This document shows, piece by piece, positions 8,854 through 41,685 of a stretch of DNA of 64,000 nucleotides; the stretch's first letter is position 1, and every line of letters starts with the position of its first letter. The position numbers and the translations under genes were made by a program. The notes under the pieces were generated by a model. That model had not been told where the DNA came from and searched no databases. It saw nothing but the letters and a program-made list of their open reading frames with translations. This stretch comes from an uncultured Pseudomonadota bacterium (GTDB taxonomy: Bacteria > Myxococcota_A > UBA796 > SXON01), in the NCBI GenBank assembly GCA_903885375.1, contig CAISIK010000083.1:1-64000 (forward strand), in the 5' to 3' direction.

Positions 8854-10604
8854 CAGCGCACGCGAGCCAGCACGCGCCCGCCCTTCTCCATGATCTCGAG
8901 CACCACGAGCGACTCATCGAGCGCCACGGCCGCGAGCACCGGCGGCCCCTCGCCGGCCACGAAACGCAGGTCCTCGAGGTCCTCCAGCTCGGCGGTGCCG
9001 AGGATGGGCGTGGGCGCCGGGGGGTCGCCCGAGGCGGGCAGGAAGATGGCCATCGGCATCGGCACATCCCGATCGGCCACGGGCTCGCGCATCCACGCCA
9101 CCCACCAGCCGCCCTGGGCCGCGCGGATGTCCACCGATCCCACGGAATGCTTGGCGTCGAGCCGGATCACCTCGGTGTCCACGCCGAGCCGCTGCACGCG
9201 CACGCCCTTCTCCTCCCGCGTGATCCACGCGAGCGCGATGAGGTCCTCGCGCAGGGCGCTCGCCGCCTGGAGCCGGCCAGGGAACCCGGTCGGCGCCGTG
9301 ATCAGGCGCCCGATGCCCTGGTCCTCCACGGCCGTCACGGTGCCGCCCTTGCCCAGCACCACCGGGTTCAACCGGTCGCAGAAACCCCGGTAGGTGCTCG
9401 CCGGCGCCCGCAGACGCTCCACAAGGCCCTCCGGCGACCAGCGATGCACGCTGAGCATGCCGCGACCGATGCCGTAGATCAGCGCGCCGTCCCCGTCGCC
9501 GACGATGACGGGCAGCGTGGTGGGAGAGTAGCCGAGGCGGGTGGTGCGACCGGGACCGGGCGTGCCGGACACCGAAACGTCGAACACCGTCACGTCCATG
9601 CCGCCCGGCTTGTCCACGAGCAGGACGACCCGGAACCCGGTGGGGCTGGGCACCACATGGCGCGCCACCACCTGGGAGGCCGTGACCGGGAGCTCCGCCG
9701 CGCCCGACTCGGCGCTTCCATCGAGCGGGCGCACGGCCACGCGTAAAACTTCGGATTCACCGTCCTCAACGTTGAACCAGAGTGCGGCGATGCGCCCGTG
9801 GGCCTGGGCCACCGAGGGCTCGTCGAAGTGGAACTCCGTGGCCACCTCGGGCGTGCTCTCGGCCGCCGCCGCCCCGGCGCGGAGGCGCTCGGCAAGCGGA
9901 AGGTCCAGCACGGCATCGGTGAGGTCGGCGCCGCTGAAGTCGGTCGTATCGTCCACGAGGGCGCCGGTGAGGTCGGCAGTGGAGAGATCGGCGCCGTTGA
10001 ACCGCGCGTTGAAGAGCCGGGCGCCCTTGAGCGACGCGCCGGTGAGCCGGGCGCCGGCGAGGTTGGCATCCTCGAAGGAGGCACCATCGAGCGTGGCGCG
10101 TGAGAGGTCGGCCTCCCGCAGGGTGGCGCCCACGAAGTCGGCCTCCCGGAGGTCGGCCGCGGCCATCTTGGCTTCGGAAAGATCGGCCCGATCGAAGGAG
10201 GCATGCCGCCCGCTCACCTCGCGGAGGCGCGCGCCGGGCAGGCGCGCGTCGTTGAGGTTCGCGGTGGAGAGATCGGCCTCCGAGAGGTCGGCGCCGGACA
10301 GCTCGGCGAACGCGAGGTCCGCACCCCCGAGGTAGGCCTCGCGCAACCTCGACTTGATCGCCACCACCCGCGTGAGTCGGGCGCCGGTGAAGTCCGCGCC
10401 CACGAGCGTGGCCTTGCTGAGATTGGCTCCCGACAGGTCGGCGGAGGAGAAGTCGGCTTTCTCCAGGTTGGCCCCGGAGAGATCAACCCCCGGCAGGCTG
10501 AGGTTCGCGAGGTCGGCCGCGAACAGGTCGAGGGTCACGCGCTGGCCGCGCCTTCCGTTGAACTCCTCGACATTCTGGGCGAGCAGCAGTTCGAGCAGCG
10601 TCAA
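8853..10604 (-). CDS. Pentapeptide-repeat protein with C-terminal beta-rich domain
   Basis: In this 583-residue protein, residues about 25-235 are continuous A(D/N)LXX pentapeptide repeats (for example ADFSSADLSGANLSKATL). They fold as a right-handed quadrilateral beta helix. Residues 265-583 contain repeated short strands, Trp/Gly turns and phrases such as ALIYGIGRG and RWSPEGL, suggesting a beta-propeller-like domain, though I recognise no family. Pentapeptide proteins include DNA-gyrase-protecting DNA mimics and many of unknown role. The strongly acidic, Asp-containing helix is compatible with mimicry, but nothing else supports it. The gene diverges from the cyclase gene with a 138-bp spacer and overlaps the downstream hydrolase by one base. 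Confidence 0.8.
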   Translation of the reverse strand: MTLLELLLAQNVEEFNGRRGQRVTLDLFAADLANLSLPGVDLSGANLEKADFSSADLSGANLSKATLVGADFTGARLTRVVAIKSRLREAYLGGADLAFAELSGADLSEADLSTANLNDARLPGARLREVSGRHASFDRADLSEAKMAAADLREADFVGATLREADLSRATLDGASFEDANLAGARLTGASLKGARLFNARFNGADLSTADLTGALVDDTTDFSGADLTDAVLDLPLAERLRAGAAAAESTPEVATEFHFDEPSVAQAHGRIAALWFNVEDGESEVLRVAVRPLDGSAESGAAELPVTASQVVARHVVPSPTGFRVVLLVDKPGGMDVTVFDVSVSGTPGPGRTTRLGYSPTTLPVIVGDGDGALIYGIGRGMLSVHRWSPEGLVERLRAPASTYRGFCDRLNPVVLGKGGTVTAVEDQGIGRLITAPTGFPGRLQAASALREDLIALAWITREEKGVRVQRLGVDTEVIRLDAKHSVGSVDIRAAQGGWWVAWMREPVADRDVPMPMAIFLPASGDPPAPTPILGTAELEDLEDLRFVAGEGPPVLAAVALDESLVVLEIMEKGGRVLARVR

Positions 10605-26267: not shown

Positions 26268-26805
26268 CGCCGGGGAGCGCCTCGTAGAGCTGACCCACGC
26301 GGGCCTGCACGTCGGTGTAGTTCACCCGCTCCGCGGGCAGGTCCGCCGCGGCGGCGTCGGCGTGGGCCCCCTCGGCGGAGAGCACCAGCGGGCCCGAAGC
26401 GATCGGGCCCACGAGGAAGCCGCCCGGAGGCACCGCGGTTTCCGCCGCGAGGAGGCAGAGGGTGCGCGGGCCCGGCGGCCCGCCCTGGAGGTCCCACGCC
26501 TTGGCGATGGAGACGAGGCCCGCCGCGGCGGTGGCCTCCGCGGCGTTCGTGGGGATGCGGGCTACGAGCAGGAGCGGCGCGCCACCGGGCTTTCCGGCTC
26601 GCGTTGCGCAGGTCCCCTCCCCCTCCGACACCTCGGCGAACTGCATCTGGCGCAGGCGGTCCAGGAAGGCCGCCCCCGCCGGCTCCGTGCTGAAACGCCG
26701 GACATCGCGCCGGAGATCTTCGTGCGAGATGGCCTCGGCCCCGCCGGGCGGGAGCTCCACGCCGAGTTGCTCCGCCGGGCACGCGATAAGCAACAGGATG
26801 GCCAT
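26233..26805 (-). CDS. Putative lipoprotein with a degenerate M28-peptidase-like core
   Basis: The 190-residue protein starts at the ATG at 26805, placing a lipobox (LLLIAC, Cys9) at the right distance. The longer in-frame start at 26940 would bury this signal 45 residues in and is rejected. The central part (LLLVARIPTNAAEATAAAGLVSIAKAW, split by me, then RTLCLLAAE) has the strand-turn-helix pattern of M28 aminopeptidases around the metal-binding GAHxD site. Here the ligands are missing, so it is probably non-catalytic. The start codon overlaps that of the divergent gene inside the palindrome ATGGCCAT. The family link is tentative. Confidence 0.5.
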   Translation of the reverse strand: MAILLLIACPAEQLGVELPPGGAEAISHEDLRRDVRRFSTEPAGAAFLDRLRQMQFAEVSEGEGTCATRAGKPGGAPLLLVARIPTNAAEATAAAGLVSIAKAWDLQGGPPGPRTLCLLAAETAVPPGGFLVGPIASGPLVLSAEGAHADAAAADLPAERVNYTDVQARVGQLYEALPGATTPGPTPRSP

Positions 26806-27697
26806 GCTCGTCCTGACCCTCGCATATGCCGCCGACGACGTCTGCTCCAGCTGGAGCCCCTCGGAGCTGGCGGCGAAGGTGGGCGATGTCCCTACGTCGG
26901 AGGCGTCGGGGCTCGCCCGGTGGGGGTCGGGCCTCCTCACCCTCGCCGACTCCTCGGGAAAGCCGGAGCTCTACGAGATCGACGAGAACGCCGAATTCGC
27001 GCGGACCATCCCGGTCGACGGCGCCACCAACACCGACTGGGAGGACCTCGCCGTGGCCCCGTGCGACGAGGGCGAGTGCGCCTTCATCGCGGATATCGGT
27101 GACAACGACGGCATCCGCGGGAGCGTCACCATCTGGCGCGTTCCCTTGAGCGAGGACACCATCCTCAGCGCCACCGCCTGCACGCTCGAGTACGAGGACG
27201 GCGAGTCCCACGATGCCGAGGCGCTCCTGTACTTCCCCGACGGCTCGGTGCGCGTGGTGACCAAGGGCTCCGACCACGCCACGGTCTTCCGCTCGGAAAC
27301 GCTGCGTTGCGATGGCGAAGCGCAGGTGCTCACCGAGGAGGTGAAGTTGGAGCTCGGCGAGCCGGTGACGGGCGGCACGGTGAACGCCGACGGCTCGCTC
27401 GTGGCCCTGCGCGGCCTCACCACCGGCTGGGTGTGGCGCGGCTGCGTGCTCGACTGGTCCGTCGAGCCGACGGAGCTCCTTTTTGTGGGCGAGGACCAGG
27501 GCGAAGGGTTCACCGTGAACGACGACGGCTCGTTCACCAGCAGCTCGGAGGGCGACAAGTTCGAGCTGCACGACCTCCCCTGCACGGCGTCCTCGGCGCT
27601 GGTTTGTGAGGCCTGCGGGTGCGCGGCTGGCGGGGAGGGCACAGGCGCGGCCCTCGGGCTCGCCGCGTGGGCAGCCGTGCGACGGCGCCGCCGCTGA
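26798..27697 (+). CDS. Beta-propeller-like secreted protein with MYXO-CTERM tail
   Basis: The 299-residue protein has a signal peptide (MAMLVLTLAYAADD), a domain of repeated short strands, and a C-terminal sorting signal. TDWEDLAVAP and FIADIGDN in the domain are typical of SdiA-regulated/esterase-like propellers. The tail has CEACGCAAGGEG, a hydrophobic helix, then five Arg at the end. MYXO-CTERM tails are thought to be cut at the Cys by a myxosortase and the protein retained at the cell surface. The ATG at 26798 overlaps the divergent start; ATG 26804 is an alternative. The propeller role is unknown. Confidence 0.75.
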   Translation: MAMLVLTLAYAADDVCSSWSPSELAAKVGDVPTSEASGLARWGSGLLTLADSSGKPELYEIDENAEFARTIPVDGATNTDWEDLAVAPCDEGECAFIADIGDNDGIRGSVTIWRVPLSEDTILSATACTLEYEDGESHDAEALLYFPDGSVRVVTKGSDHATVFRSETLRCDGEAQVLTEEVKLELGEPVTGGTVNADGSLVALRGLTTGWVWRGCVLDWSVEPTELLFVGEDQGEGFTVNDDGSFTSSSEGDKFELHDLPCTASSALVCEACGCAAGGEGTGAALGLAAWAAVRRRRR

Positions 27698-27718
27698 ATT
27701 GCCCGCTCTCGTGACCGG

Positions 27719-27731
27719 GCGATGACATCGC
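27719..27731. other. Palindrome upstream of the lipid synthase gene
   Basis: GCGATG-A-CATCGC is a perfect 6-1-6 inverted repeat in the 74-bp spacer before the megasynthase. It can be extended outward to GGGC/GCCC with a 2-base bulge. It lies 40 bp upstream of the ATG, where an operator is plausible, but it could equally fold as a terminator of the preceding gene (22 bp after its stop; no T tract). Confidence 0.35.
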
Positions 27732-27771
27732 GCCCGGGCTGATCGGCTAGACGGCCGGCCCGGGAGCGCGC

Positions 27772-30700
27772 ATGCCTGCAAACCGCCAGCCCATCGCGAT
27801 CATCGCCGCCGAGTGCGTCCTGCCCGGCGCGCTCGATCTCGCCAGCTTCCGCGCGCTGGTGATGAACGGCACCTCCTCCGTGGGCGACCCGCCGGAGGGC
27901 CGCTTCGGGGTGCCGAACGCCGCCGTGCGCGGCGCCGGGCGCGATCGCGCCCACTCACTCGCGGGCGGGTACGTGACCGACTTCGTGCCCAACCTCGCGG
28001 GGCTCGACGTTCCCGATCTGGCCGGGCTCGACCCCCTCGTGCACTGGCTCCTGCATTGCAGCCGCGGCGCGCTGCGGGCCGCAGGTGGGGCGAACGTGCG
28101 TACGGGCGCGGTCTTCGGCAACCTCTCCTTCCCAACCGACGGCATGGCCCACTGGGCCGAAGGCCTCGCCTCCGGCACCCCTCCGGGCGACCCGCGGAAC
28201 CACTTCATGTCGGGCCTCCCGGCCGCGATCGTGGGCCAGGCGCTCGGGCTCGAAGCCGGCACCACCTGCGTGGATGCGGCGTGCGCCAGCTCGCTGTACG
28301 CGTTGAAGCTCGCTTGTGATGCGCTCGCCACCGGCCGCGCCGACCGCATGCTCGCCGGCGCCGTGCAGCGCGCCGACAGCCTCTTCCTCCACATCGGGTT
28401 CGCCCAGCTCGGGGCGCTCTCCCCGCAGGGCCGCAGCCGCCCCTTCCACCAGGACGCCGACGGCCTCGTGCCCGCCGAGGGCTGCGTGGTCTTCGTGCTC
28501 CGGCGCCTCGACGATGCCGTGGCCGCCGGCGAGCCCATCCTCGGCGTGATCCGCGGCATCGGCCTCTCCAACGACGGTCGCGGCCGCAGTCTGCTCGCCC
28601 CCTCCTCGGAGGGACAGGTGCGATCGATGCGCAGCGCTCTGGCCGAAGCCGACTGGGCGCCGGCCTCGGTGCAGTTCCTCGAATGCCATGCCACCGGCAC
28701 GCCCACCGGCGATCGCACCGAGCTGGAGAGCCTCGCTGCCGTGTACCCGGGCGGCCCGGTGGGCTCGCTCAAGGGCAACCTCGGCCACCTCATCACGGTG
28801 GCTGGCGCGGCCGGCCTCCTCAAGGTGCTGGTGGCGATGGAGGCGGGCGTGCTCCCGCCGGCGCCCGACGCCGACTCGCCGCTCCCCGAGATGGGCCGGT
28901 TCTCCCTGCTCTCGGAGGCGGCGCCCTGGCAGGCTTCCCCCTCGGGCACCCGCCGCGCCGCGGTGAGCGCGTTCGGATTCGGCGGCAACAACGCCCACCT
29001 CCTCGTGGAATCCTGGCTGCCCGGGGCCACTTCTGGCCCGCACAACGCGCAGGCGCGTGCGCCGCTCGCCGTGCGGGCGCTCACCGAGCGCCGGGGCGAA
29101 GGCGATGTGGTCCTGCCGATGGCCGGGTTGCGGTTCCCTCCTGCCGACCTCCAGTCGGCGCTGGCCCAGCAGGCGCTGGTGCTGCAGGCCGGGCGCGAAG
29201 CCTGGGCGCAGGCGGGTCTCACGCCCGCCCGCGAGCGCCTCGGCGTCTTCGTGGGCATGGCCTGCGATGGCCGCATCACCCGCTGGGGCACGCGCTGGCG
29301 CCGGCTCCACGCCGGCAAGGCCACCGCGGAGGCGCTCGACGAGGTGGCTCCGCCGCTCCGCGCCGAACACGTGGTGGGCACGATGCCGAACATCGTGGCG
29401 AACCGTCTCGGCGTGCAGATCGACGCCGCCGGGCCGAGCTTCACGCTCTCCCAGGAGGAGCTGTCCGGCCTGCGCGCGCTCGATGCCGCCTGGGATGCCC
29501 TCACCCGCCACGAGATCGACGTGGCCGTGGTCGCCGCGGTCGACCTTCCCACCGATCCGCGCGCGCTCGAAGCCCGCCATCGCCTCGGCCGCCGCGAGCC
29601 GGTGGAGGATGCCGTGGTGGTGCTGGTGCTCCAGCGCGCCGCCGACGCGAGCGGGGGCCCGGTGCTGGGGCTCCTCGCCGACGACGTGGAGGGCGTCGTG
29701 GCCCGCCCCCACTCCCCTCGCCATGGCGCGGCCGACGCGCTCGTGGCCGTGGCCGACGCGCTTCGGCGTGGGGGCGACTGCGTGGTGCAGGTGTCCTCGC
29801 TCGGCGGCGAACGAGCCAGCGTGGGCGTCCGGGCGAAGCAGCGGGCTGCTCCCGTGCTCACCGCCCCGCCCGCCGGCCCGGCGCTGCGCATCCCCCTTCA
29901 TCCTCCCGAGCCCGCCTGGCCCCATCCGGAGCAAGCCGTGAACGACTCCCCTGCCACGCGTCTCCTCCCCCGCCCGCCGGCGCTCGTGCCCGTGGCCGCT
30001 TCGGCTGGCGCCGCCCGGCCGCCGGCGGCCCGTCCGCCGGAGCCCATGAGGGTGGAAGCCCCGCACGGGGCCCCTCCCGCCGATTCGCTGGCCGCAGCGC
30101 CCGGCGAGGACTGGACCTCCGGCTACTCGGCCTGGCGCCGCGCCGTCGGCGCGGCCCACGGGGACTACCTCGAAGGCGCGGCCGCCCTGCACACGGCGTT
30201 CCTCGCCCAGGCGAGCGCCAGCTCCGCCCTGATGCTCCGGCTCGCCACGCAGGCCATGCCCGAGCCGGTGGCGTCCCCGCCGGCGCCCATGCCCGTGGTG
30301 GCGGAGGTCACCCGGGGCCCGTTGCCGCCGCCGGCCCCGGCGCTGCGTCCCCCTCCCCCGGCTCCCCGGGCCGTGGCCCCCAAGCCCGCGGCGCCGCCCG
30401 CGCCGAAGGTCGAAGCCCCCGTGGCCGAACCGATCGAGCTTCCCGGCCCGCGCCTCAGCCGCGCCGAGCTGGAGATGGGCGCCAACGGGAGCATCACCTC
30501 GCTGTTCGGTCCCGAGTTCGCGGATCACGACGCCTGGGCGCGCGTGGTCCGCATGCCCGCGCCGCCGCTCCTGCTCGCCGACCGCGTGCTCGGTATCGAG
30601 GGCCCGATGGGCGTGCTCGGCAAGGGCCGGATCGTCACCGAGACCGATGTGCGCGAGGACAGCTGGTACCTCCACGATGGCCGGATGCCGGGCGGGCTGA

Positions 30701-33700
30701 TGATCGAGTCCGGGCAGGCCGATCTGCTGCTCGGTAGCTGGCAGGGCATCGACCGGCTCAACCGGTCGGAGCGCATCTACCGCCTCCTTGGCTGCACGCT
30801 CACCTACCGCGGGGAGCTCCCCCGCCCCGGCGAGACGCTCCGCTACGACATCCGCATCGATCAGCACGCGAAGCTGGGCGGCATCCGGATGTTCTTCTTC
30901 CGCTACGACTGCCACGTGGGCGGACAGGCGCGCCTCAACGTGAAGGAAGGGCAGGCCGGCTTCTTCAGCGACGAGGAGCTGGCCAACTCCGGTGGTTGCA
31001 TCTGGGATGCGGTGGACCACGACCCGGGCCCCGGCCAGGTGGACGCCCCCGTGGCCATCGCCACCCGTCACCAGCTCGACCGTGCCGGCCTCGAAGCCTT
31101 CGCCCGTGGCGACCTCGTGACCGCCTTCGGCCCCGCCTTCCGACGGGCGTGCACCCACACCTGGACGCCGCGCCCGCCCGGCGACCGCATGCTCATCCTC
31201 GACCGGGCCGAGTTCGACCTGGAGGGGGGCCCCTGGAAGCGCGGCTACCTGCGCGCGGAGCTCGACATCCGCCCCGACCTGTGGTTCTTCCACGGTCATT
31301 TCCACAACGACCCGTGCATGCCGGGCACCTTGATGTTCGATGGCTGCCTGCAGGCGATGTACCTCCTGCTGGCCGCGGGCGGGCACACGCTCGAACACGA
31401 CGGATGGCGCTTCGAGCCGCTCAAGGACATGCCGTTCAAGCTGCGTTGTCGCGGGCAGGTCACGCCGAAGAGCACGAAGCTCGTGTACGAGGTCTTCGTG
31501 ACCGAGGTCGTGGGGGGCCCGGTGCCCCGGCTCGTGGCGCAGGTGCTGTGTACGGTGGACGGGTTGAAGTGTTTCCACGCCGACCCGATGGGCGTGGAGC
31601 TCGTGCCCGACTGGCCGCTCACGCGGCCGGCGTTCGCGCACCACAAGGAAGTTCCCGCGGTGGAAGGGCCGCCGCCCGCCTACGCCTGGCCGAGCCTGCT
31701 CGCCTGCGCGTGGGGGCGCCCTACCGACGCCTTCGGCCCGATGTACGCCGCGTTCGATGGCCCGCGCAAGGTGCCGCGCCTCCCCGGCCCGCCGTACCAC
31801 TTCATCTCCCGCGTGCTCACGACGGAGGGCAAGCAGGGTGGCCAGTCCGCCGGCTGCGCGGCCACGATGGCCTACGACGTGCCGGCCGACGCCTGGTACT
31901 TCGCCGAGGGCTCCTCGGGCACGATGCCCTGGGCCGTGCTCCTCGAAGCCGCGCTTCAGCCCTGCGGCTGGCTCGCGAGCTGGGCGGGATGTGCCGTGGG
32001 TCCCGACGACTTCCTGTTCCGGAACCTCGACGGCACCACCACCGTGCACCGCGAGGTCCGGCCCGACAGCGGCACCCTCACCACCGTGACACGTCTCGAT
32101 CGTGTATCACGCTCTGCCGGTATGATCCTGGTTACTTTCACGGTAGCCGCGCGTGATACACACGGCGATGTGTTGGACATGAAGACCACGTTCGGGTTCT
32201 TCCCGCCGGCGGCCTTCGTGGACCAGGTGGGAGTCGGCAGCACGGCGGAGGAGCGGGCGCGGCTCGCGGCCCCGTTCACGCCCGTGGCCATCCCCGATGG
32301 CAAGGATGGCCTCGGCGGCCCTCCGGGGCGGCTCCGCCTGCTCGATCGGGCCGGGAGGGTCGACGCCGACTGGTACCGCGGCGAGATGGACGTGCGCGCC
32401 GACGACTGGTTCTTCAAGGCCCACTTCTACCGCGATCCCGTGCAGCCGGGCTCCCTCGGCATCGAGGCGCTGGTGCGGCTGTTGCAGGTGGCAATGGTGG
32501 ACCGCGGCATGGCCGCGGAGCTGCGCGCCCCGCGTTTCGAAGCCGTGGCGAGCGGCGAGCCGATGACCTGGAAGTACCGCGGGCAGGTGGTGCCCGAGAA
32601 CCGCCTCGTGCAAAGCGAGGTCCGCATCCTCGAATCGCGCAGGGACGACCGCGGCATGCTCGCCGTGGCGGAGGGCCACCTGTGGGTGGACGGCAAGAAG
32701 ATCTACACCATGCCGCGATTTGCGATGCGCGTGGTGGAGGCCGACGCCGGCGAAACGGTGCTCCTCCCCGTGCCAGTGGACCACCGGCCCACGTGGACCG
32801 TGCCGGCCACTGCCATGATGACGATGGCCATGCACGCCCTCGCCTCCTCCGGCGCCTCGGCGCTCGTGGATGCCAGCGCGCTCCGATGGCTCACCTTCCC
32901 CGACGCGCGCCCCCGCTCCATCGCCGTGTCGCGCACCCCGGTGGAAGGCGGCGAGGTGGTGGTGCTCGGCCCGCCCGACCGGCCCTTCTTCCGCGGCACC
33001 ACCTCCGACGACACCGCCATCCCCGCGCTGCCGGAGCTTCGTGGCGCGCAGGCGGACGAACGGGACGGCGAGCACCTCTACGCGAGCGGCTCGCTGTTTC
33101 ACGGGCCGGGCTTCCAGGCCGTGGGCAGGCTGCTCCGGCGCGGAGAGAACGGCGCCAGCGCGCTCCTGCGTCCCGGGCTCCCGCCCGACGTGCTGCTCGA
33201 TGGCATGACCCACGTCGTGCCGCACGACGACATGGGCCAGTGGTTCGACGTGCCGATGGGACACGCCGCCTACCCGGCCCGACTGCGCCGGCTTGTGGTC
33301 GCGGGCGCCCTTCCTGCGGGAGCTTCCCGCGTGGAGGCGCGCGCGTTGGCGCTGGAGCGGGGCCGTCCGGTGGTGGGGCTGTGGCTCTTCGAGAGTGACA
33401 CAAGCGACACATGCATCGCGTTCATCCTGCTTGAAGAGGTGCTTCTGCCGAAGGGTCCGATCGGCAGGCTCGCCCCGGCGGATCGGCGCGCCTTCCTCGA
33501 GGGCCACCCGGTGCCCGAGGCCGGGCTCTCCACCCGGGTGGGCGACAGCTTCGAGCTCGGCGACTCCACCGTGAAGGCGAGTGACTGGCTCCCCGGCACC
33601 GTGGCGGCCGTGTACGGCAGCGACGAGCCGCGCGAGGTGGCCAGCCGCGATGCCGCCGCCGCCGTGCTCGGCGGGCACCCGGGCACCGTCCGGATCGCGG

Positions 33701-34605
33701 GCACGCGGGCAGCCCAGCCCGACCGGCCGTTGCGGTCCGTCGAGATCGTCGCCGAAACGGGTGCGGGCGCCACGCGGGTTCGTCCTGGCGCCGTGCGGGA
33801 GCTCGATCTGGACGCGGTGAACGCCTGGTGGCGCCAAAACCTCGGGGTGGGCGCCTGGCCGGGCGAGCGGGTATTCGCCGCGCTCGTGGAGCGCTGGCTT
33901 GCCGACCTGCGCGTGGTGAACCCGGCCGCGATGCGCGCCCTGCGCACCCCCGCGCTGTACCTCGCGAACCACGAGAACTACCTCGAGAGCGTGATCTTCA
34001 CGACGCTGGCGAGCGCCCTGTTCGATCGGCCGCTGCGTGCCGTCGCCAAGGTGGAGCACCAGACCCGCTGGCTCGGGCGGCTTCATGCCGCCATGACGAG
34101 CTACCCCGGGCACCGCGACCCGCCCCGGATCGTCTGGTTCGATCAGGATCGGCCGGCCTCCCTCCGCCCCATCCTCGACGCGGCCCCCCGCGGCGCCTCC
34201 CTGCTCGTGCATGTCGAAGGCACCCGCCAGACGCAGAGCGGCGCGGCCGTGGAGAAGGTGTCGTCGGTGTGGGCCGACCTCGCGATCGAACGCGGCTGGC
34301 CCATCGTCCCGGTGGCCTTCCGCGGCGGCGTGGCCGGCGAACGGACCGACCTCCCCACGGGGCGGCAGACGCACGTGGTGGGCGAGCCCATCGCCGCCGA
34401 GGCCCTCGTCGCGCTCCCGTACGCCGAACGGCGGCGCGTGATCGCGGAGGCGATCAACGCCCTCGGGGCCGACGTTCCCGTGCCCACGCCCAGCGCGGGC
34501 ATCGTGGCCGGGGCCGGCCGGACGCTCGCGTCCGTCATCGAAAACTCGGGCGCGCTCCAGGGCGCCGACCCCGTGTGGGCCGCGCGGCTGCGCACGCTCG
34601 GCTGA
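27772..34605 (+). CDS. PfaC/Pfa3-like lipid megasynthase: KS-CLF-DH-DH-DH-like-AGPAT
   Basis: The protein has 2277 residues. An active ketosynthase spans about 1-425 with Cys171 (DAACASS), His306 (CHATGT) and His339 (KGNLGH). A chain-length-factor-like KS spans about 440-650, with the Cys position lost (SQEE at 560-563). A Pro/Ala linker follows. Two PfaC-type double-hotdog dehydratases come next: pseudo-hotdog near 968 with His1176 (HGHFHNDPCMPG), then pseudo-hotdog near 1378 with His1551 (KAHFYRDPVQPG). A PKS-DH-like region covers about 1660-1900 (His1777, Asp1810). A C-terminal glycerolipid-type acyltransferase has H2067-x4-E2072 and VEGTR. I find no AT, ACP, KR or ER, so partners must act in trans. 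Pfa3 of myxobacterial PUFA synthases has a similar order. The oleA gene follows after 133 bp on the same strand. Confidence 0.85.
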   Translation: MPANRQPIAIIAAECVLPGALDLASFRALVMNGTSSVGDPPEGRFGVPNAAVRGAGRDRAHSLAGGYVTDFVPNLAGLDVPDLAGLDPLVHWLLHCSRGALRAAGGANVRTGAVFGNLSFPTDGMAHWAEGLASGTPPGDPRNHFMSGLPAAIVGQALGLEAGTTCVDAACASSLYALKLACDALATGRADRMLAGAVQRADSLFLHIGFAQLGALSPQGRSRPFHQDADGLVPAEGCVVFVLRRLDDAVAAGEPILGVIRGIGLSNDGRGRSLLAPSSEGQVRSMRSALAEADWAPASVQFLECHATGTPTGDRTELESLAAVYPGGPVGSLKGNLGHLITVAGAAGLLKVLVAMEAGVLPPAPDADSPLPEMGRFSLLSEAAPWQASPSGTRRAAVSAFGFGGNNAHLLVESWLPGATSGPHNAQARAPLAVRALTERRGEGDVVLPMAGLRFPPADLQSALAQQALVLQAGREAWAQAGLTPARERLGVFVGMACDGRITRWGTRWRRLHAGKATAEALDEVAPPLRAEHVVGTMPNIVANRLGVQIDAAGPSFTLSQEELSGLRALDAAWDALTRHEIDVAVVAAVDLPTDPRALEARHRLGRREPVEDAVVVLVLQRAADASGGPVLGLLADDVEGVVARPHSPRHGAADALVAVADALRRGGDCVVQVSSLGGERASVGVRAKQRAAPVLTAPPAGPALRIPLHPPEPAWPHPEQAVNDSPATRLLPRPPALVPVAASAGAARPPAARPPEPMRVEAPHGAPPADSLAAAPGEDWTSGYSAWRRAVGAAHGDYLEGAAALHTAFLAQASASSALMLRLATQAMPEPVASPPAPMPVVAEVTRGPLPPPAPALRPPPPAPRAVAPKPAAPPAPKVEAPVAEPIELPGPRLSRAELEMGANGSITSLFGPEFADHDAWARVVRMPAPPLLLADRVLGIEGPMGVLGKGRIVTETDVREDSWYLHDGRMPGGLMIESGQADLLLGSWQGIDRLNRSERIYRLLGCTLTYRGELPRPGETLRYDIRIDQHAKLGGIRMFFFRYDCHVGGQARLNVKEGQAGFFSDEELANSGGCIWDAVDHDPGPGQVDAPVAIATRHQLDRAGLEAFARGDLVTAFGPAFRRACTHTWTPRPPGDRMLILDRAEFDLEGGPWKRGYLRAELDIRPDLWFFHGHFHNDPCMPGTLMFDGCLQAMYLLLAAGGHTLEHDGWRFEPLKDMPFKLRCRGQVTPKSTKLVYEVFVTEVVGGPVPRLVAQVLCTVDGLKCFHADPMGVELVPDWPLTRPAFAHHKEVPAVEGPPPAYAWPSLLACAWGRPTDAFGPMYAAFDGPRKVPRLPGPPYHFISRVLTTEGKQGGQSAGCAATMAYDVPADAWYFAEGSSGTMPWAVLLEAALQPCGWLASWAGCAVGPDDFLFRNLDGTTTVHREVRPDSGTLTTVTRLDRVSRSAGMILVTFTVAARDTHGDVLDMKTTFGFFPPAAFVDQVGVGSTAEERARLAAPFTPVAIPDGKDGLGGPPGRLRLLDRAGRVDADWYRGEMDVRADDWFFKAHFYRDPVQPGSLGIEALVRLLQVAMVDRGMAAELRAPRFEAVASGEPMTWKYRGQVVPENRLVQSEVRILESRRDDRGMLAVAEGHLWVDGKKIYTMPRFAMRVVEADAGETVLLPVPVDHRPTWTVPATAMMTMAMHALASSGASALVDASALRWLTFPDARPRSIAVSRTPVEGGEVVVLGPPDRPFFRGTTSDDTAIPALPELRGAQADERDGEHLYASGSLFHGPGFQAVGRLLRRGENGASALLRPGLPPDVLLDGMTHVVPHDDMGQWFDVPMGHAAYPARLRRLVVAGALPAGASRVEARALALERGRPVVGLWLFESDTSDTCIAFILLEEVLLPKGPIGRLAPADRRAFLEGHPVPEAGLSTRVGDSFELGDSTVKASDWLPGTVAAVYGSDEPREVASRDAAAAVLGGHPGTVRIAGTRAAQPDRPLRSVEIVAETGAGATRVRPGAVRELDLDAVNAWWRQNLGVGAWPGERVFAALVERWLADLRVVNPAAMRALRTPALYLANHENYLESVIFTTLASALFDRPLRAVAKVEHQTRWLGRLHAAMTSYPGHRDPPRIVWFDQDRPASLRPILDAAPRGASLLVHVEGTRQTQSGAAVEKVSSVWADLAIERGWPIVPVAFRGGVAGERTDLPTGRQTHVVGEPIAAEALVALPYAERRRVIAEAINALGADVPVPTPSAGIVAGAGRTLASVIENSGALQGADPVWAARLRTLG
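32086..32164. repeat. Cluster of related inverted-repeat elements inside the synthase gene
   Basis: GTGTATCACGC (32102-32112) is matched by its exact reverse complement GCGTGATACAC (32151-32161), 11 bp with a 38-bp loop. A third related half-site, GTGACACG (32086-32093), forms an imperfect palindrome with CGTGTATCAC (32101-32110). The patch is richer in A/T than its surroundings and lies in the third hotdog segment, where the protein sequence still reads normally. It may be chance, an internal regulator site, or an RNA hairpin. Confidence 0.5.
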
Positions 34606-34738
34606 ACCTCCAGGCGGCGCCCCCCGGGCGCGAGAACCCCGCGCCGAGGGTGCTGCCGGCAAGGCGGCATACGGGCGCGCGCGTTCCGCGTCGGCAGGCG
34701 TGCAAGGCTGGCTTCGGTGGGATAGCCGCCAGCCTGAA

Positions 34739-35758
34739 ATGCGGTTCCGTCAGGTCGCCATCCACTCCGTCGGCTATGAGCTTGCTCCGAGGCGGATTTC
34801 TTCGTCGCACCTGGAGGAGCGCCTCAACGGCGCCCTCGTGCGCATGCGGCTCCCGCCGAAGCCGATCGAGCTCCTGACGGGCATCACCGAGCGCGGCTTC
34901 TGGGAATCCGGCACCCGGGTGCACGAAGTGGCCACGCTTGCGGCCCGCAAGGCCATCGCCGCGAGCGGCGTCGATCCGAACCGGATCGGCCTCCTGATCA
35001 ACACCTCGGTGTGCAAGGACTACCTCGAGCCCTCGATGGCGGCGCTGGTGCATGGCGATCTCGGCCTGCCCGCCACCTGTCGCAACCTCGATGTGGCCAA
35101 CGCCTGCCTCGGCTTCATCAACGGCATCGAGCTGGCCGGCCAGATGATCGAGTCCGGGGTGATCGACCACGCGCTGGTGGTGGATGGGGAGAGCGCCGGC
35201 GAGATCGTCGACAGCACCATCCGTCGCCTGCACGAGCCCCAGTCCACCTCGCAGGACTTCTGGGACAACTTCGCCACCCTCACGCTCGGCAGCGCCGCGG
35301 TGGCCATGGTGCTCTCGCGGGCCGACCTCGCGCCCGACGGGCACGCCGTCAACGGCAGCGTGGCCATGGCCGACACGGCCAACAACCGCCTGTGCCTCGG
35401 CACCTCCGAGCGCATGGTCACCGACAGCACGCGCCTCCTGAAGGCCGGCGTGGCGCTCGCGCGCCGCACCTGGCTCGAAGCCGCGGATCAGCTCCCCGAC
35501 TGGTCGCAGGCCGGCATCCAGCACTACGTGTGTCATCAGGTGGGCAAGGCCCACCTGGCCGCGCTGTGCCAGGCGCTCGAGATCGAGCAGAGCCGCTGCC
35601 ACCTCACCTACCCGCACCTCGGCAACGTGGGTCCGGCCGCCGTGCCGCTTACGCTGGCGCTCGCAGCCGAGTCCGGGCGCATCCAGCGCGGCGAGCACGT
35701 GGCGCTCATGGGCATCGGCAGCGGGCTGAACGTCGCGATGATGAGCCTGACCTGGTAG
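34739..35758 (+). CDS. oleA: OleA, head-to-head acyl condensing thiolase
   Basis: The 339-residue protein is the usual length. The thiolase-superfamily triad is Cys123 (NACLGF), His266 (HQVGKAHL) and Asn296 (PHLGNVGPA). Glu97 (YLEPSMAA) sits 26 residues before the Cys, the same spacing as the essential Glu117/Cys143 of Xanthomonas OleA. OleA performs a non-decarboxylative Claisen condensation of two fatty acyl-CoAs to a 2-alkyl-3-ketoacid. The ATG at 34739 gives the standard N-terminus (MRFRQVAIHSVGYELAP). An upstream in-frame start at 34700 would add 13 non-family residues. First gene of the ole operon. Confidence 0.93.
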   Translation: MRFRQVAIHSVGYELAPRRISSSHLEERLNGALVRMRLPPKPIELLTGITERGFWESGTRVHEVATLAARKAIAASGVDPNRIGLLINTSVCKDYLEPSMAALVHGDLGLPATCRNLDVANACLGFINGIELAGQMIESGVIDHALVVDGESAGEIVDSTIRRLHEPQSTSQDFWDNFATLTLGSAAVAMVLSRADLAPDGHAVNGSVAMADTANNRLCLGTSERMVTDSTRLLKAGVALARRTWLEAADQLPDWSQAGIQHYVCHQVGKAHLAALCQALEIEQSRCHLTYPHLGNVGPAAVPLTLALAAESGRIQRGEHVALMGIGSGLNVAMMSLTW

Positions 35759-35762
35759 CGCG

Positions 35763-36623
35763 ATGACCGGGGTGGACTGGCGATCGCACTACCCCTTCGA
35801 GGGTCGAAAGTTCCCGCAGCCCGCGGGGATGATGAACTACGTCGATGCCGGCGCGGGCCGCCCGATCCTCTTCGTGCACGGAAACCCCACGTGGAGCTTC
35901 TACTGGCGGGCCGCGCTCACGGCCCTGCAGGGCTCGCACCGGGTCATCGCCCCCGACCACCTCGGCTGCGGCCTGTCGGACAAGCCCCAGGACTGGACCT
36001 ACCTGCTGGGCGACCACATCGACAACCTCGAGCGCCTCGTGCTCGCGCTCGATCTGCGCGACATCACGCTCGTCGTCCACGACTGGGGGGGGGCCATCGG
36101 CCTGGGTGTGGCCACGCGGCACCCTGATCGGTTCCGCGACTTCGTCATCACCAACACCGGCGCGTTCCGGGCGCCGCACATCCCGCTCCGCATCGCCGTG
36201 TGTCGCACGCCGCTCCTCGGCGAGCTCGCCGTGCGCGGCCTCAACGGCTTCGCCGGCGCCGCCGTCTACATGGCCACCGAGCGTGGGCTCGCCCCCGAGG
36301 CCCGCGCGGGCCTCCTCGCGCCCTACGACACCTGGGCCCACCGCATCGCCACGCACCGGTTCGTGCTCGACATCCCGATGTCGCCGGCCCACCCGAGCTG
36401 GGACACGCTGGTGGCCATCGAGGAAGGCCTGCCCGCGCTCGTGAACCACCCCATGCGGCTGGTCTGGGGGGAGCGCGACTGGTGCTTCACGCCCTGGTTC
36501 CGCAAGGAATTCGAGCGGCGGTTCCCGGCGGCGCGCAGCTTCCCGCTCGCCGACGTGGGGCACTATGTGATGGAGGATGCTCCGGCCGAGCTGGTGCGGC
36601 ACATCGCCGAGCAGGCGCAGTGA
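35763..36623 (+). CDS. oleB: OleB, beta-lactone decarboxylase
   Basis: The 286-residue alpha/beta-hydrolase belongs to the haloalkane-dehalogenase branch. The nucleophile is Asp107 in VVHDWGGAIG, followed by the family Trp108. Asn41 and Trp44 are in HGNPTWSFYW, and the catalytic His267 is in GHYVMED. OleB converts cis-beta-lactones to cis-olefins with loss of CO2. It is a separate gene, as in Gram-negative ole clusters, not an OleBC fusion as in actinobacteria. It starts 4 bp after oleA and its stop overlaps the oleC start (GTGA). Confidence 0.92.
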   Translation: MTGVDWRSHYPFEGRKFPQPAGMMNYVDAGAGRPILFVHGNPTWSFYWRAALTALQGSHRVIAPDHLGCGLSDKPQDWTYLLGDHIDNLERLVLALDLRDITLVVHDWGGAIGLGVATRHPDRFRDFVITNTGAFRAPHIPLRIAVCRTPLLGELAVRGLNGFAGAAVYMATERGLAPEARAGLLAPYDTWAHRIATHRFVLDIPMSPAHPSWDTLVAIEEGLPALVNHPMRLVWGERDWCFTPWFRKEFERRFPAARSFPLADVGHYVMEDAPAELVRHIAEQAQ

Positions 36624-38161
36624 ACGTCGCGCACCACCTTGCGAGGGCGGCCAAGGAGCGAGGAGACGACCCGGCGATCGTGATGATGAAGACGGGAGAG
36701 ACCATCTCGTTTTTCGACCTCGACTGGAAGTCGGGGGCCATCGCCCGCGGCTACGCCATCGCCGGCATCAACCCGGGCGATCGGGCGCTGGTCATGCTGC
36801 GCCCGGGCATCGACCTCATCCTCACCGTGTGGGCGTGCTTCAAGTCGGGGGTCATCCCCGTGCTCATCGACCCGGGCATGGGCGTCGCCAACTTCCTCGC
36901 GTGCGTGAAGCGCATCCGTCCCACCACGCTCATCGGGGTGCCGGAGGCCCACATCCTCTCGTACTTCACGCGCTGGTCGTGGCCCGGCCTGCACATGCGC
37001 GTGTACTCGGGCTGGAAGGCGGGGCTCGACGGGGTGACGATGACCGAGCTCATCGGCAGCCCCGGTGTGGAGCGCCCGCGGAAGGTGTACCCGGAGGAGC
37101 CGGCGGCGATCCTGTTCACGTCGGGCAGCACCGGCCCCGCCAAGGCCGTGCAGTACACCCACGGCAACTTCGACGCCCAGGTGTCCGCCCTGCGGGACAC
37201 CTACGGCTACCGTTCCGGCCAGGTCGACGTGGCGGCGTTCCCGCCCTTCTCGCTCTTCGACGCCGCGCTGGGCATCACCAGCGTAGTCCCCGACCTCGAC
37301 GCCGCCAACATGGCGGCCACGCGCCCCGAGGCGATCGCGGAGGCGATCACCCAGCACGGGGCGCACAACGTCTTCGGCAGCCCCGTCATCTGGCGGAAGT
37401 TCGCGCCCTGGGCCACCGAGCGCGGCCTCACCTTCCCGAGCGTGGAGCGCCTCATGATCGCCGGGGCCAGCGTGCCGCCGGCGCTCGTTGCCCAGCTCCG
37501 CGCGCTCCTCCCGAACGGCGATGTCGGTACCCCCTACGGCGCCACGGAGGCGCTGCCCGTCGCGGCCGTGTGGGGGAGCGACCTCGTGACGCGCTTCGCG
37601 GCCCGCTCCGCGCAGGGGGAAGGCACCTGCGTGGGCAAGCCGGCCGCCGGCATCGAGGTGCGCATCCTCCGCGTGTCGGACGACCCCGTGGGCGATCCCG
37701 CCAACGCCGACTGGCTCCCCGACGGCGAGGTGGGCGAGATCTGCGTGGCGGGGCCCGTCGTCACCCAGCTCTACCTCGACAACGCCGAAGCGAACGAGCG
37801 CAGCAAGATTCCCATCGACGAGGACTCCGTCTGGCACCGCATGGGCGACCTCGGCTACCGCGACGCGGAGGGGCACCTCTGGCTCTGCGGCCGCAAGGCC
37901 GAGGCCGTGGGCACCAGCTACCCGGACTGCATCGAGGGCATCTTCAACCCCTTCTGCGGGCGCACCGCGCTGGTCGGCGTGAACGGCGAGCCCTGGCTCG
38001 TGGTGGAGGGCGCGCGCGACGAGGCGATCGCCAAGCGCGTGATGGAAACGGGGCACGTGCGCGGCGTGCTGTTCCACCCGGCCTTCCCCGTGGACAAGCG
38101 CCACAACAGCAAGATCCACCGGCGGACGCTCGCCACCTGGGCCGCGGGAATGGCTCGGTGA
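36620..38161 (+). CDS. oleC: OleC, beta-lactone synthetase
   Basis: This 513-residue AMP-binding enzyme starts at the GTG at 36620 (GTGA overlap with oleB). The P-loop equivalent is ILFTSGSTGPAKAVQYTH (around residue 168), with later motifs TPYGATEALP and HRMGDLGYRD. The C-terminal Lys region is in HNSKIHRRTL. OleC adenylates 2-alkyl-3-hydroxyacids and closes the beta-lactone ring. Length and motifs match the family, and it is sandwiched between oleB and oleD with 4-base overlaps, indicating coupled synthesis of an OleBCD complex. Confidence 0.93.
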   Translation: MNVAHHLARAAKERGDDPAIVMMKTGETISFFDLDWKSGAIARGYAIAGINPGDRALVMLRPGIDLILTVWACFKSGVIPVLIDPGMGVANFLACVKRIRPTTLIGVPEAHILSYFTRWSWPGLHMRVYSGWKAGLDGVTMTELIGSPGVERPRKVYPEEPAAILFTSGSTGPAKAVQYTHGNFDAQVSALRDTYGYRSGQVDVAAFPPFSLFDAALGITSVVPDLDAANMAATRPEAIAEAITQHGAHNVFGSPVIWRKFAPWATERGLTFPSVERLMIAGASVPPALVAQLRALLPNGDVGTPYGATEALPVAAVWGSDLVTRFAARSAQGEGTCVGKPAAGIEVRILRVSDDPVGDPANADWLPDGEVGEICVAGPVVTQLYLDNAEANERSKIPIDEDSVWHRMGDLGYRDAEGHLWLCGRKAEAVGTSYPDCIEGIFNPFCGRTALVGVNGEPWLVVEGARDEAIAKRVMETGHVRGVLFHPAFPVDKRHNSKIHRRTLATWAAGMAR

Positions 38162-39114
38162 AGGCGTTCGTCACGGGCGGGAACGGCTTCCTCGGCGCCG
38201 AGCTCGTGCGCCAGCTCCGGGCCGCGGGCCACGAGGCCACGGCGGCCTCCCGCCAGACCGGGGTGGACATCCTCGACCCGGGCGGCCTGCGCACCGCCAT
38301 GGCCGGCCACGACATCGTCTTCCACGTGGCCGCGCTCGCCGGGGTGTGGGGGCGCGCCAGCGATTTCGAGCGGACGAACATCCTCGGCACCGAAAACATC
38401 GTCCAGGCGATGCGCGAGCTGGGCATCGGGCGCCTCGTCTACACGAGCTCGCCGAGCGTGGTCTTCGATGGCGGCGACCAGATCGACGCCACCAGCACCC
38501 TGCCCTACCCCGAGCGTTTCCTCGCGGACTACCCGCGGACCAAGGCGGTCGCGGAGCGGCGGGTCCTCGCGGCGAACGGGCCGGGCCTCGCCACGGTGGC
38601 GCTCCGTCCGCACCTCATCTACGGTCCCGGCGATCCGCACCTCCTCCCCCGTCTCCTCGCGCGTGCCCGCGCCGGCCGCCTCCGCGTCGTCGGTTCGGGC
38701 GAAAATCGGGTGTCGCTCAGCTTCGTGGAGAACGCCGCTGCCGCCCACCACCAGGCCGCGCTCGCCCTCACCGGGCCGCAGAGCCCGCCCGCCGGGCGTG
38801 CGTTCTTCGTGAACGATCCCGGGCCGGTTCGCCTGTGGGACTGGCTCAACGGGCTGTTCGGGCAACTGGGCGTGGCCCCCGTCACCCGGCGGGTTCCGGC
38901 GGGTGTGGCCTACGGCGCGGGTGCCGTGGCCGAGGCCGTCTGGCGGCTCCTCGGGCTGTCGGGCGAGCCACCGATGACCCGTTTTGTCGCCCTCCAGCTC
39001 GCCACGCACCACACCTATTCGCTCGCCGAGGCGCAACAGGCCTTCGACTACCGGCCGCCCGTCGGCCCGGAAGAGGCCCTCGCTCGGACGGTGGCGTCGT
39101 TGCGGACGGCCTGA
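38158..39114 (+). CDS. oleD: OleD, 2-alkyl-3-ketoacid reductase
   Basis: The 318-residue extended short-chain dehydrogenase (3-beta-HSD type) has the nucleotide-binding turn TGGNGFLGA (residues about 6-14). The active-site pair is Tyr125-x3-Lys129 (YPRTK), with YTSSPSVVF before it, as in OleD and NSDHL enzymes. OleD reduces the OleA product to the 3-hydroxyacid using NADPH. The GTG start overlaps the oleC stop by 4 bp. It ends the operon: the next gene converges 9 bp further on. Confidence 0.92.
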   Translation: MKAFVTGGNGFLGAELVRQLRAAGHEATAASRQTGVDILDPGGLRTAMAGHDIVFHVAALAGVWGRASDFERTNILGTENIVQAMRELGIGRLVYTSSPSVVFDGGDQIDATSTLPYPERFLADYPRTKAVAERRVLAANGPGLATVALRPHLIYGPGDPHLLPRLLARARAGRLRVVGSGENRVSLSFVENAAAAHHQAALALTGPQSPPAGRAFFVNDPGPVRLWDWLNGLFGQLGVAPVTRRVPAGVAYGAGAVAEAVWRLLGLSGEPPMTRFVALQLATHHTYSLAEAQQAFDYRPPVGPEEALARTVASLRTA

Positions 39115-39123
39115 AGCGGCGGT

Positions 39124-40092
39124 TCAGCGCGCGTCCCACCCCTGCCGGTAGGCCACCCGCGCGCCCGCAGCGCCGACCTCGACCATCGCGAGCTCGGCCC
39201 GCGCGGGGTTGAGCACGAGGTAGCCGAAGCCGAGGCTGGACGCGAGGTAGGCCGACCCCGGTACCGCGGGGCTCACCTTGCGCACCTCGCCCCCCGCCCC
39301 GGAGACCACCTCCACGGGCGCGCTGCCATCGTCGATGAGCTCGAGGTTGTGCTCGTGGCCGCAGAGCCAGAACTGCACGCCGCCGGATTCGAGGATCGGG
39401 CCGATGGTGCGGGTGAGCTCCGCGCCTCCGCCATGCAAGCCCGAGCTGTGCATCGGGTGGTGCCCGTAGGCCACCCGCCATGGCGAGGTCGACTGGGAGA
39501 GCTCGCGCCGGAGCCACGTTCCCTGCTCGTCGTCGATCTTGCCGACCTCACCATCGCCGGTGTCCAGCACGAAGAACGAGGCGGGCCCGCGGGTGTAGGT
39601 GTACCAGCGCGCCGGCTGGACCCACTTCTTCGAGGTGCGCGCGTAAGCGAGCTCGGCCTCCACGTTGCCGTAGTGATCGTGGTTGCCGAGCGCCATCATG
39701 AAGGGCCCGTCGAAACCCTCCCAGTAGGCCTCGAACCGCTCCTTGAAGATCGGGTCGTCCGCCGTTTGCGCGCCCTTCGGGTAGAGGATGTCGCCGAGGA
39801 CGGCCACGAAGTCGCAACGGCGCGCCGCGCACCAGGACTTCACGGCTTCGGCCACGGCCTTCTGGCCGGGCGAGCCCTTGCCGGTGTCGCCGAGGAACAC
39901 GAACGCCGTGCTGGTGGCGGGGTCCGGGCCGGGAACCGGCGCTTCGAGCATGGCGGGCGGCGGGACGGTCGCCGAGGGCGGAGGCGCCTCCGGGGTTCGA
40001 GCCGAGGCGGCCGGTGGCGCGAGGATCGGCGCACGATCGGGCGCCACCGGGCTGGGGGAGGCACAGGCGAGGAGGAGGAGGGCGGCGATCAT
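39124..40092 (-). CDS. Lipoprotein metallophosphoesterase (purple acid phosphatase-like)
   Basis: The 322-residue protein has a short lipoprotein signal (MIAALLLLAC, Cys10). A 45-residue Pro/Ala linker follows, then a calcineurin-like phosphoesterase with all metal motifs: FLGDTGKG, LGDILYPKG, GNHDHYGN, GHHPMHSSG and GHEHNLE. This motif set and the Tyr in GDxxY fit the purple-acid-phosphatase/PhoD-like branch. It should hydrolyse phosphate esters at the envelope; the substrate is unknown. It is 39 bp downstream of der on the same strand. Confidence 0.87.
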   Translation of the reverse strand: MIAALLLLACASPSPVAPDRAPILAPPAASARTPEAPPPSATVPPPAMLEAPVPGPDPATSTAFVFLGDTGKGSPGQKAVAEAVKSWCAARRCDFVAVLGDILYPKGAQTADDPIFKERFEAYWEGFDGPFMMALGNHDHYGNVEAELAYARTSKKWVQPARWYTYTRGPASFFVLDTGDGEVGKIDDEQGTWLRRELSQSTSPWRVAYGHHPMHSSGLHGGGAELTRTIGPILESGGVQFWLCGHEHNLELIDDGSAPVEVVSGAGGEVRKVSPAVPGSAYLASSLGFGYLVLNPARAELAMVEVGAAGARVAYRQGWDAR

Positions 40093-40131
40093 CGCGGGGC
40101 TTCTATCCCAGTGGGGGGGGGACCCCGACCC

Positions 40132-41685
<1,554 letters not shown>

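What the first reader, a model, noticed from the sequence alone, without database searches (positions are those of the whole stretch)
27772..39114. Pfa-like lipid megasynthase directly upstream of oleABCD: a possible dedicated polyene-hydrocarbon locus
Seen: a KS-CLF-DH-DH-DH-like-AGPAT protein and oleA, oleB, oleC, oleD in one direction, with a 133-bp gap before oleA and 4-bp gap or overlaps after. Known: Shewanella joins two polyunsaturated acyl chains by Ole enzymes to give a C31 nonaene, but there pfa and ole are separate loci as far as I recall. Inference: here the acyl-chain maker and the condensing pathway are genetically linked, suggesting a polyene olefin or ketone made from synthase products. 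I know of no described locus with this exact pairing.
Basis: partly seen in the sequence, partly recalled or inferred. Interest (0 to 1): 0.85.

Follow-up and report, generated by a model that had tools for sequence, protein, structure and literature searches.

The report
PUFA synthase gene beside olefin genes
A gene for one subunit of a polyunsaturated fatty acid synthase sits directly before the four genes that join two fatty chains into a hydrocarbon; such a pairing is already known from other bacteria, but here the synthase is of the myxobacterial type and its partner genes lie elsewhere in the genome.

Summary
A 2,277-aa Pfa3/PfaC-type protein (KS-CLF-DH-DH-DH4-AGPAT) ends 133 bp before oleA; oleB, oleC and oleD follow with a 4-bp gap and 4-bp overlaps. 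Catalytic motifs look intact.

The pairing is not new. Geobacter bemidjiensis carries pfaDABC-oleABCD-pfaE in tandem and makes the C31:9 nonaene (PMC4882568). Photobacterium profundum SS9 has pfa and ole adjacent (PMC6463001). Shulse & Allen 2011 call linkage frequent (PMC3098273).

The window holds only one subunit. pfaA and pfaD lie on other contigs among unrelated genes. Sister genomes have pfaA-pfaC-oleABCD, or pfaD-pfaA-pfaC...oleABCD, together. So this looks like the part of a pfa-ole supercluster that stayed together while pfaA (split in two) and pfaD moved.

PfaC and OleA lie within 10 kb in 17 of 62 relatives holding both (about 0.2 expected by chance).

Most likely, the one PUFA synthase found here feeds both phospholipid (AGPAT) and a polyene hydrocarbon (Ole). 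The product is untested. New variant of a known kind.

The parts
27772..34605 (+). pfaC / pfa3-like gene, 2277 aa: KS-CLF-DH-DH-DH4-AGPAT
   Evidence: motifs KS C171/H306/H339, CLF LSQEELSG at 559, DH H1176 and H1551, DH4 motif at 1670, AGPAT NHENYLES at 2066 and VEGTRQ at 2148
33937..34320 (+). AGPAT (acyltransferase) domain of pfaC, residues 2056-2183
   Evidence: Pfam Acyltransferase 28.2 bits, cut-off 23; motif NHxxxxES in every row in which the domain aligned
34606..34738 (+). 133-bp gap between pfaC and oleA
   Evidence: no terminator-like site; fold z = -0.96
34739..35758 (+). oleA, 339 aa (head-to-head condensing thiolase)
   Evidence: PRK09258 over cut-off; aligns end to end with PDB 3row and keeps C123 and the aligned Glu, His and Asn (their catalytic roles recalled)
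35763..36623 (+). oleB, 286 aa (beta-lactone decarboxylase, haloalkane-dehalogenase fold)
36620..38161 (+). oleC, 513 aa (beta-lactone synthetase)
38158..39114 (+). oleD, 318 aa (2-alkyl-3-oxoalkanoate reductase)

Best explanation
This is the part of a pfa-ole supercluster that stayed together in an uncultured, Myxococcota-like bacterium. pfaC encodes the KS-CLF and dehydratase/isomerase subunit, ending in an AGPAT domain, of the only PUFA synthase found in the genome. PfaA (KS-MAT-ACPs, with KR-DH on a second ORF), PfaD (enoyl reductase) and a phosphopantetheinyl transferase are encoded elsewhere and are needed with it. The synthase builds polyunsaturated acyl chains on the PfaA ACPs; these leave either through the AGPAT domain into phospholipid or to OleA, which joins two of them head to head. 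OleD, OleC and OleB then reduce, lactonise and decarboxylate the product to a very-long-chain polyene hydrocarbon. Shown: gene content and order, conserved motifs, recurrence of the linkage, pfaA and pfaD at other places. Inferred: co-transcription, ACP-to-OleA transfer in this organism, polyene nature of the product, AGPAT/OleA as alternative exits.
For: Gene content and motifs. PfaA halves on C209 and C101, PfaD on C211 and C14, PPTase-type hits on C101 and C223. Of 10 same-genus genomes holding both PfaC and OleA, 7 have oleA directly after pfaC (gaps 49-284 bp) and G004 has one gene between. G007: pfaA C-terminal part-pfaC-oleABCD; G012: pfaD-pfaA-pfaC then, after inserted genes, oleABCD on one contig. 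PfaC-OleA within 10 kb in 17 of 62 relatives, 8 genera; about 0.2 expected. Precedent: OleA condenses Pfa-derived chains, also in a strain without FadD (PMC6463001, passages); G. bemidjiensis with the tandem cluster makes C31:9 (PMC4882568).
Against: No product is known. 45 of 62 relatives with both genes do not show PfaC and OleA within 10 kb (contig breaks explain an unknown share; 4 of these 45 have OleA within 5 kb of PfaD); G020 and G014 are unlinked as far as the contigs reach, and in G010 of the same genus convergent genes follow pfaC. Only 4 of 80 named loci show OleA in the flank. PfaC carries an AGPAT exit that the Shewanella-type precedent lacks (domain list in PMC6463001). Co-transcription was not shown.
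Confidence: 0.68

Rival explanations
1. Two independent pathways side by side: PfaC serves phospholipid PUFA only, and oleABCD condenses ordinary type II fatty acyl chains, as in Xanthomonas.
For: PfaC keeps a conserved AGPAT motif, so it has its own exit; OleA also occurs without a strong PfaC hit in 13 of 75 relatives; most AGPAT-type pfa loci in the named set show no ole in the flank (76 of 80).
Against: The linkage recurs in 8 genera and several arrangements; in Shewanella OleA is reported to use the Pfa-derived chain exclusively although type II synthase is present (PMC6463001).
Confidence: 0.2
2. A dedicated hydrocarbon synthase: PfaC here serves only Ole.
For: Direct adjacency in 7 of 10 same-genus genomes. 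In the 10 relatives that hold both an AGPAT-type and a second, AGPAT-less PfaC and an OleA, OleA shares a contig with the AGPAT-less one in 5 (3 within 10 kb) and with the AGPAT-type one in 0, so a division of labour exists elsewhere.
Against: Only one PfaC was found in this genome and its AGPAT motif is conserved.
Confidence: 0.1
3. A decaying, non-functional PUFA synthase whose last linked gene happens to sit by ole.
For: pfaD and pfaA are away from pfaC, and pfaA is in two ORFs.
Against: The subunits are open and keep their domains; the same two-ORF pfaA occurs with long open frames in G003, G005, G006 and G009.
Confidence: 0.02

Closest known systems
Geobacter bemidjiensis pfaD-A-B-C-oleA-B-C-D-pfaE tandem, C31:9 producer (PMC4882568, section 17 read; assigned to 'Type I' in PMC3098273)
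   Same: pfaC followed by oleABCD in one tandem; Pfa plus Ole
   Different: There pfaD, A, B, C, ole and pfaE are together and Type I is a pfaBC fusion with AT; here pfaA and pfaD are elsewhere, no AT is seen, and pfaC ends in AGPAT
Photobacterium profundum SS9 adjacent pfa and ole operons, with pfaT between them (PMC6463001)
   Same: pfa and ole neighbours; OleA as the link between the pathways
   Different: No pfaT-like gene between pfaC and oleA here; a different Pfa type
Myxobacterial Pfa1-2-3 synthases: Sorangium, Aetherobacter, Minicystis (PMC8436480 and PMC6731297, passages)
   Same: Pfa3 with KS, CLF, FabA-type DH, PKS-type DH and AGPAT; AT absent as reported for Sorangium; PPTase apart from pfaC
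   Different: pfa1-3 are consecutive genes there; the passages I read do not mention ole. L094 (Sorangium So ce26) shows PfaA before PfaC and no ole in its flank
'Type L' secondary lipid synthase with ole in the same genome (Plesiocystis pacifica, Nakamurella; PMC3098273)
   Same: Fused KS-CLF-DH2-AT subunit; co-occurrence with ole noted and a role in olefin supply suggested in 2011
   Different: Type L has pfaD at the 5' end of the cluster; the passage gives co-occurrence for these two species, not this gene order

Membership tests
Pfa-Ole polyene hydrocarbon pathway | Pfa synthase subunits (PfaA, PfaC, PfaD, PPTase) and OleABCD in one genome | tested here: met
Pfa-Ole polyene hydrocarbon pathway | Polyunsaturated ketone or olefin dependent on pfa and ole | not testable with these tools
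   needs lipid chemistry
Tandem pfa-ole cluster (Geobacter type) | A pfa gene directly upstream of oleABCD, same strand | tested here: met
   133-bp gap
Tandem pfa-ole cluster (Geobacter type) | pfaD and pfaA in the same cluster | tested here: not met
   On C211/C14 and C209/C101, not in the window; met in sister genome G012
Myxobacterial Pfa3 | KS-CLF-DH-DH...AGPAT domain order | tested here: met
Myxobacterial Pfa3 | pfa1-pfa2-pfa3 consecutive | tested here: not met
OleABCD | Four enzyme families in the order A-B-C-D | tested here: met
   (OleC- and OleD-specific NCBIfam models below cut-off)
OleABCD | OleA catalytic Cys, Glu, His, Asn | tested here: met
   alignment with PDB 3row; roles recalled

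The most novel reading that the evidence does not exclude
In this genus the PUFA synthase has come apart into three loci (pfaD; a two-ORF pfaA; pfaC-oleABCD). pfaA stands in at least three different neighbourhoods, while pfaC stays with ole in a conserved setting. That would mean selection acts on a PfaC-Ole unit, perhaps because PfaC's AGPAT exit and OleA compete for the same ACP-bound chain, so that their ratio sets the split between polyene phospholipid and polyene hydrocarbon. The hydrocarbon could be other than the known C31:9, since the Minicystis synthase, whose Pfa3 also has DH4, makes mainly n-6 chains (that paper traces n-6 preference to DH1 of Pfa2, which was not compared here).
Probability: 0.22. 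Interest if true: 0.6.

Novelty: new variant of a known kind. Interest (0 to 1): 0.36.

Why it matters
It shows that an AGPAT-bearing, myxobacterial-type PUFA synthase subunit can sit in one unit with the Ole pathway, so polyene hydrocarbons may be made by more bacteria than the marine and Geobacter cases. Within one genus it also offers a comparison between intact and dispersed forms of a megasynthase cluster in which one cross-pathway gene pair persists. It corrects the impression that the pairing itself is undescribed.

Tried and rejected
Considered and rejected: (a) chance adjacency: the linkage recurs. (b) A dedicated hydrocarbon synthase: one PfaC found, conserved AGPAT motif. (c) AGPAT decay: HX4E where I recall HX4D as the textbook motif is seen in every row in which the domain aligned, so it is not a lesion of this gene. 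(d) Assigning OleC and OleD to the Xanthomonas or the Shewanella form by NCBIfam: both models score below cut-off. (e) A promoter or terminator between pfaC and oleA: none found, but the scan finds no promoter at all in 27000-40500, so it is a weak test, and the fold is not unusual.

A paper search for dispersed pfa genes gave, on its subject, only PMC3098273. Searches touching ole in myxobacteria listed no paper on a pfa-ole locus there beyond PMC3098273 and PMC4882568 (listings only, top 15 of 480 and of 84). That AGPAT-type pfaC next to ole, or dispersed pfa genes, is undescribed rests only on searches of open-licence papers; most subscription papers are not held.

Rows dropped and limits: five genomes with only short hotdog hits (G074, G079, G095, G102, G105) were removed before the count of 62. 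The table typed into one search leaves out weak PfaC rows and the OleA or PfaD rows of some genomes without a PfaC hit; the close PfaD-OleA pair of G058 was found by reading and is not among the 62. Distances are between match ends. The chance figure assumes 5.8-Mb genomes and random places. The Fisher test ignores shared ancestry. L175 (G026) gave no gene calls, so its order rests alone. Gene calls outside the window come from my own simple codon-usage caller, and starts may be off. In the tree (107 of 126 sequences after removing repeats, midpoint root, no support values read) the labels are partly wrong because repeats were dropped: L065, L068, L069, L086 and L126 are linked but print without _OLE, and L085 prints with it although its short contig shows no ole (its genome, G008, is linked through another contig). 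No statistic was taken from that tree.

Full report
OBSERVATION. One open frame at 27772-34605 (+) encodes 2277 aa. Pfam finds two ketoacyl-synthase stretches, four FabA-like stretches and an acyltransferase. The best solved relative by sequence is 6riw 'ORF10', which I recall as the KS-CLF didomain of Moritella PfaC. Motif positions: KS C171/H306/H339, CLF LSQEELSG at 559, DH H1176 and H1551, a PKS-type DH motif at 1670, AGPAT NHENYLES at 2066 and VEGTRQ at 2148. Pfam finds no AT domain. oleA (34739-35758), oleB (35763-36623), oleC (36620-38161) and oleD (38158-39114) follow on the same strand. OleA aligns over its whole length with PDB 3row and keeps the Cys, Glu, His and Asn that I recall as catalytic.

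THE REST OF THE SYNTHASE. From the known pathway PfaC alone cannot make a chain: PfaA (KS-MAT-ACP-KR) and PfaD (ER) are needed. Neither is in the window. In the same genome (90% complete, 224 contigs) PfaA-like sequence lies at the end of contig C209 (KS-MAT) and at the end of C101 (ACPs, then a separate KR-DH frame), PfaD on C211 and C14, and PPTase-type hits on C101 and, within a large PKS frame, on C223. On one contig of G003 (same genus) the C209 neighbours, a 1421-aa PfaA N-part, a 730-aa KR part and then C101 neighbours follow each other. This indicates that C209 and C101 adjoin and that pfaA is two frames in that lineage.

RELATIVES. In 112 relatives (own genome included) the C-terminal part of PfaC matched in 71, 66 of them strongly; OleA matched in 75 and PfaD in 75. 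Strong PfaC and OleA occur together in 62 (table 62/4/13/33, Fisher P 1.3e-13, ancestry ignored). They lie within 10 kb of each other in 17 of 62, in 8 genera, against about 0.2 expected; in 45 of 62 they do not, in an unknown share because contigs end, and 4 of those 45 (G025, G026, G029, G034) have OleA within 5 kb of PfaD. In the genus itself 10 genomes hold both: oleA follows pfaC directly in 7 (G000 133 bp, G001 49, G005 49, G006 80, G007 80, G008 284, G009 99), one gene lies between in G004, contig ends hide the junction in G002, and in G010 convergent genes follow pfaC instead. G003 shows neither gene.

ARRANGEMENTS. G007: the C-terminal part of pfaA, pfaC, oleABCD and a carboxyltransferase gene in one direction; pfaD and the N-part of pfaA are together on another contig. 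G012: pfaD, pfaA (one 2216-aa frame) and pfaC, then inserted genes, oleABCD and the carboxyltransferase on one contig. G025 and G034: oleABCD-pfaD-pfaA. G029: oleABCD-pfaD-pfaA-pfaC. G063, G067, G068, G070: a second kind of PfaC, without AGPAT, ends within 4 bp of or overlaps oleA; in G068 it is KS-CLF-AT-DH-DH. By contrast G000, G006 and G009 keep pfaC-oleABCD while pfaA and pfaD each stand alone, and in G005 pfaA stands alone (the PfaD loci of G005 were not read). The neighbours of pfaA are shared by G000 and G003 and, by eye, by G006 and G009, but differ between these pairs and G005. The pfaC-ole setting is more constant: the gene upstream of pfaC is shared by G000, G006 and G009, and the metallophosphatase and Der genes downstream by G000, G001, G005 and G006, the metallophosphatase also by G002. 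The reading is that a supercluster came apart and pfaC-ole stayed; the reverse, assembly from scattered genes, is not excluded.

NAMED GENOMES. This is a lower bound: 10 kb upstream does not reach beyond pfaD and many contigs are short. Titles of the closest records read uncultured Deltaproteobacteria or proteobacteria; that the organism is a Myxococcota-like freshwater bacterium is my inference from titles and isolate names. On the DH tree linked loci fall in at least five places (the clade of this genus with G012; L071/L072; L080; L103/L104; the AGPAT-less group), read without support values.

MECHANISM. Known: in Shewanella OleA is reported to use the Pfa-derived 16:4 chain, and OleA expressed with pfa in E. 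coli gives a 31:8 ketone also without FadD (PMC6463001: first of five parts and passages). Inferred here: AGPAT and OleA are alternative exits for the chains. In relatives with two kinds of PfaC and an OleA (10 genomes) OleA shares a contig with the AGPAT-less one in 5 and with the AGPAT one in none, so elsewhere a separate synthase may feed Ole; here only one PfaC was found. DH2-DH4 of Pfa3 influence the product, and the Minicystis synthase makes mainly n-6 PUFAs, a preference that the paper ties to DH1 of Pfa2 (PMC6731297, passages); so the hydrocarbon need not be C31:9.

KNOWN OR NEW. PMC4882568 (section 17 read whole) states that G. bemidjiensis carries pfaD, A, B, C, oleA, B, C, D and pfaE in tandem and makes C31:9. 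PMC3098273 (section 7 read, other passages seen) reports ole co-occurring in 44 of 80 genomes, often linked, and suggests that Type L clusters (including Plesiocystis) may supply olefins. PMC8436480 (passages) gives the myxobacterial domain order and the lack of AT in Sorangium. So the pairing is known; an AGPAT-type PfaC directly before ole, with the other pfa genes dispersed, is a variant that my searches did not find described.

VERDICT. Real, largely explained, modestly interesting. The strongest new point is evolutionary: pfaC stays with ole while its own partner subunits stand elsewhere.

Noticed in passing
L027 16357-19227, L034 13792-16934; L168, L169, L170, L171: PfaA is in two ORFs (KS-MAT-ACPs and KR-DH) in G000, G003, G005, G006 and G009, but one 2216-aa frame in G012.
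   Followed up: partly
L068 3010-4626, L070 7470-9086, L083 5519-7135, L166 4741-6294: A carboxyltransferase-like gene follows oleD in G007, G008, G010 and G012 (Pfam tested for two of them; the others by BLAST or by eye); it might supply malonyl-CoA. Absent after oleD in this window.
   Followed up: partly
L074-L077: A second, AGPAT-less PfaC kind directly before oleABCD in four genomes of another family of the class.
   Followed up: partly
genome G003: Neither PfaC nor OleA was found although PfaA and PfaD are present and the genome is 94% complete: lost or missed together.
   Followed up: no
G000:C14:49546-50856 and G000:C211:49951-51267: Two PfaD-family genes; the C211 one is the closer relative of the PfaD in the pfa cluster of G012. 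The role of the other is unknown.
   Followed up: no
window 26798-27697: A MYXO-CTERM-like protein (17.2 bits, cut-off 20) lies 74 bp upstream of pfaC on the same strand; homologues sit there in G006 and G009. It could share the transcript.
   Followed up: no
L091 (CAMAXZ010000055.1): Record titled Klebsiella pneumoniae MAG, but its contig has the length of the G014 contig of this family: probably a mislabelled MAG.
   Followed up: no
L139, L140, L147, L150, L151, L153, L157, L161: AGPAT-bearing PfaC relatives in records titled Mycobacterium or Mycolicibacter.
   Followed up: no
window 8853-10604 (-): A 583-aa pentapeptide-repeat protein; not connected with the finding.
   Followed up: no
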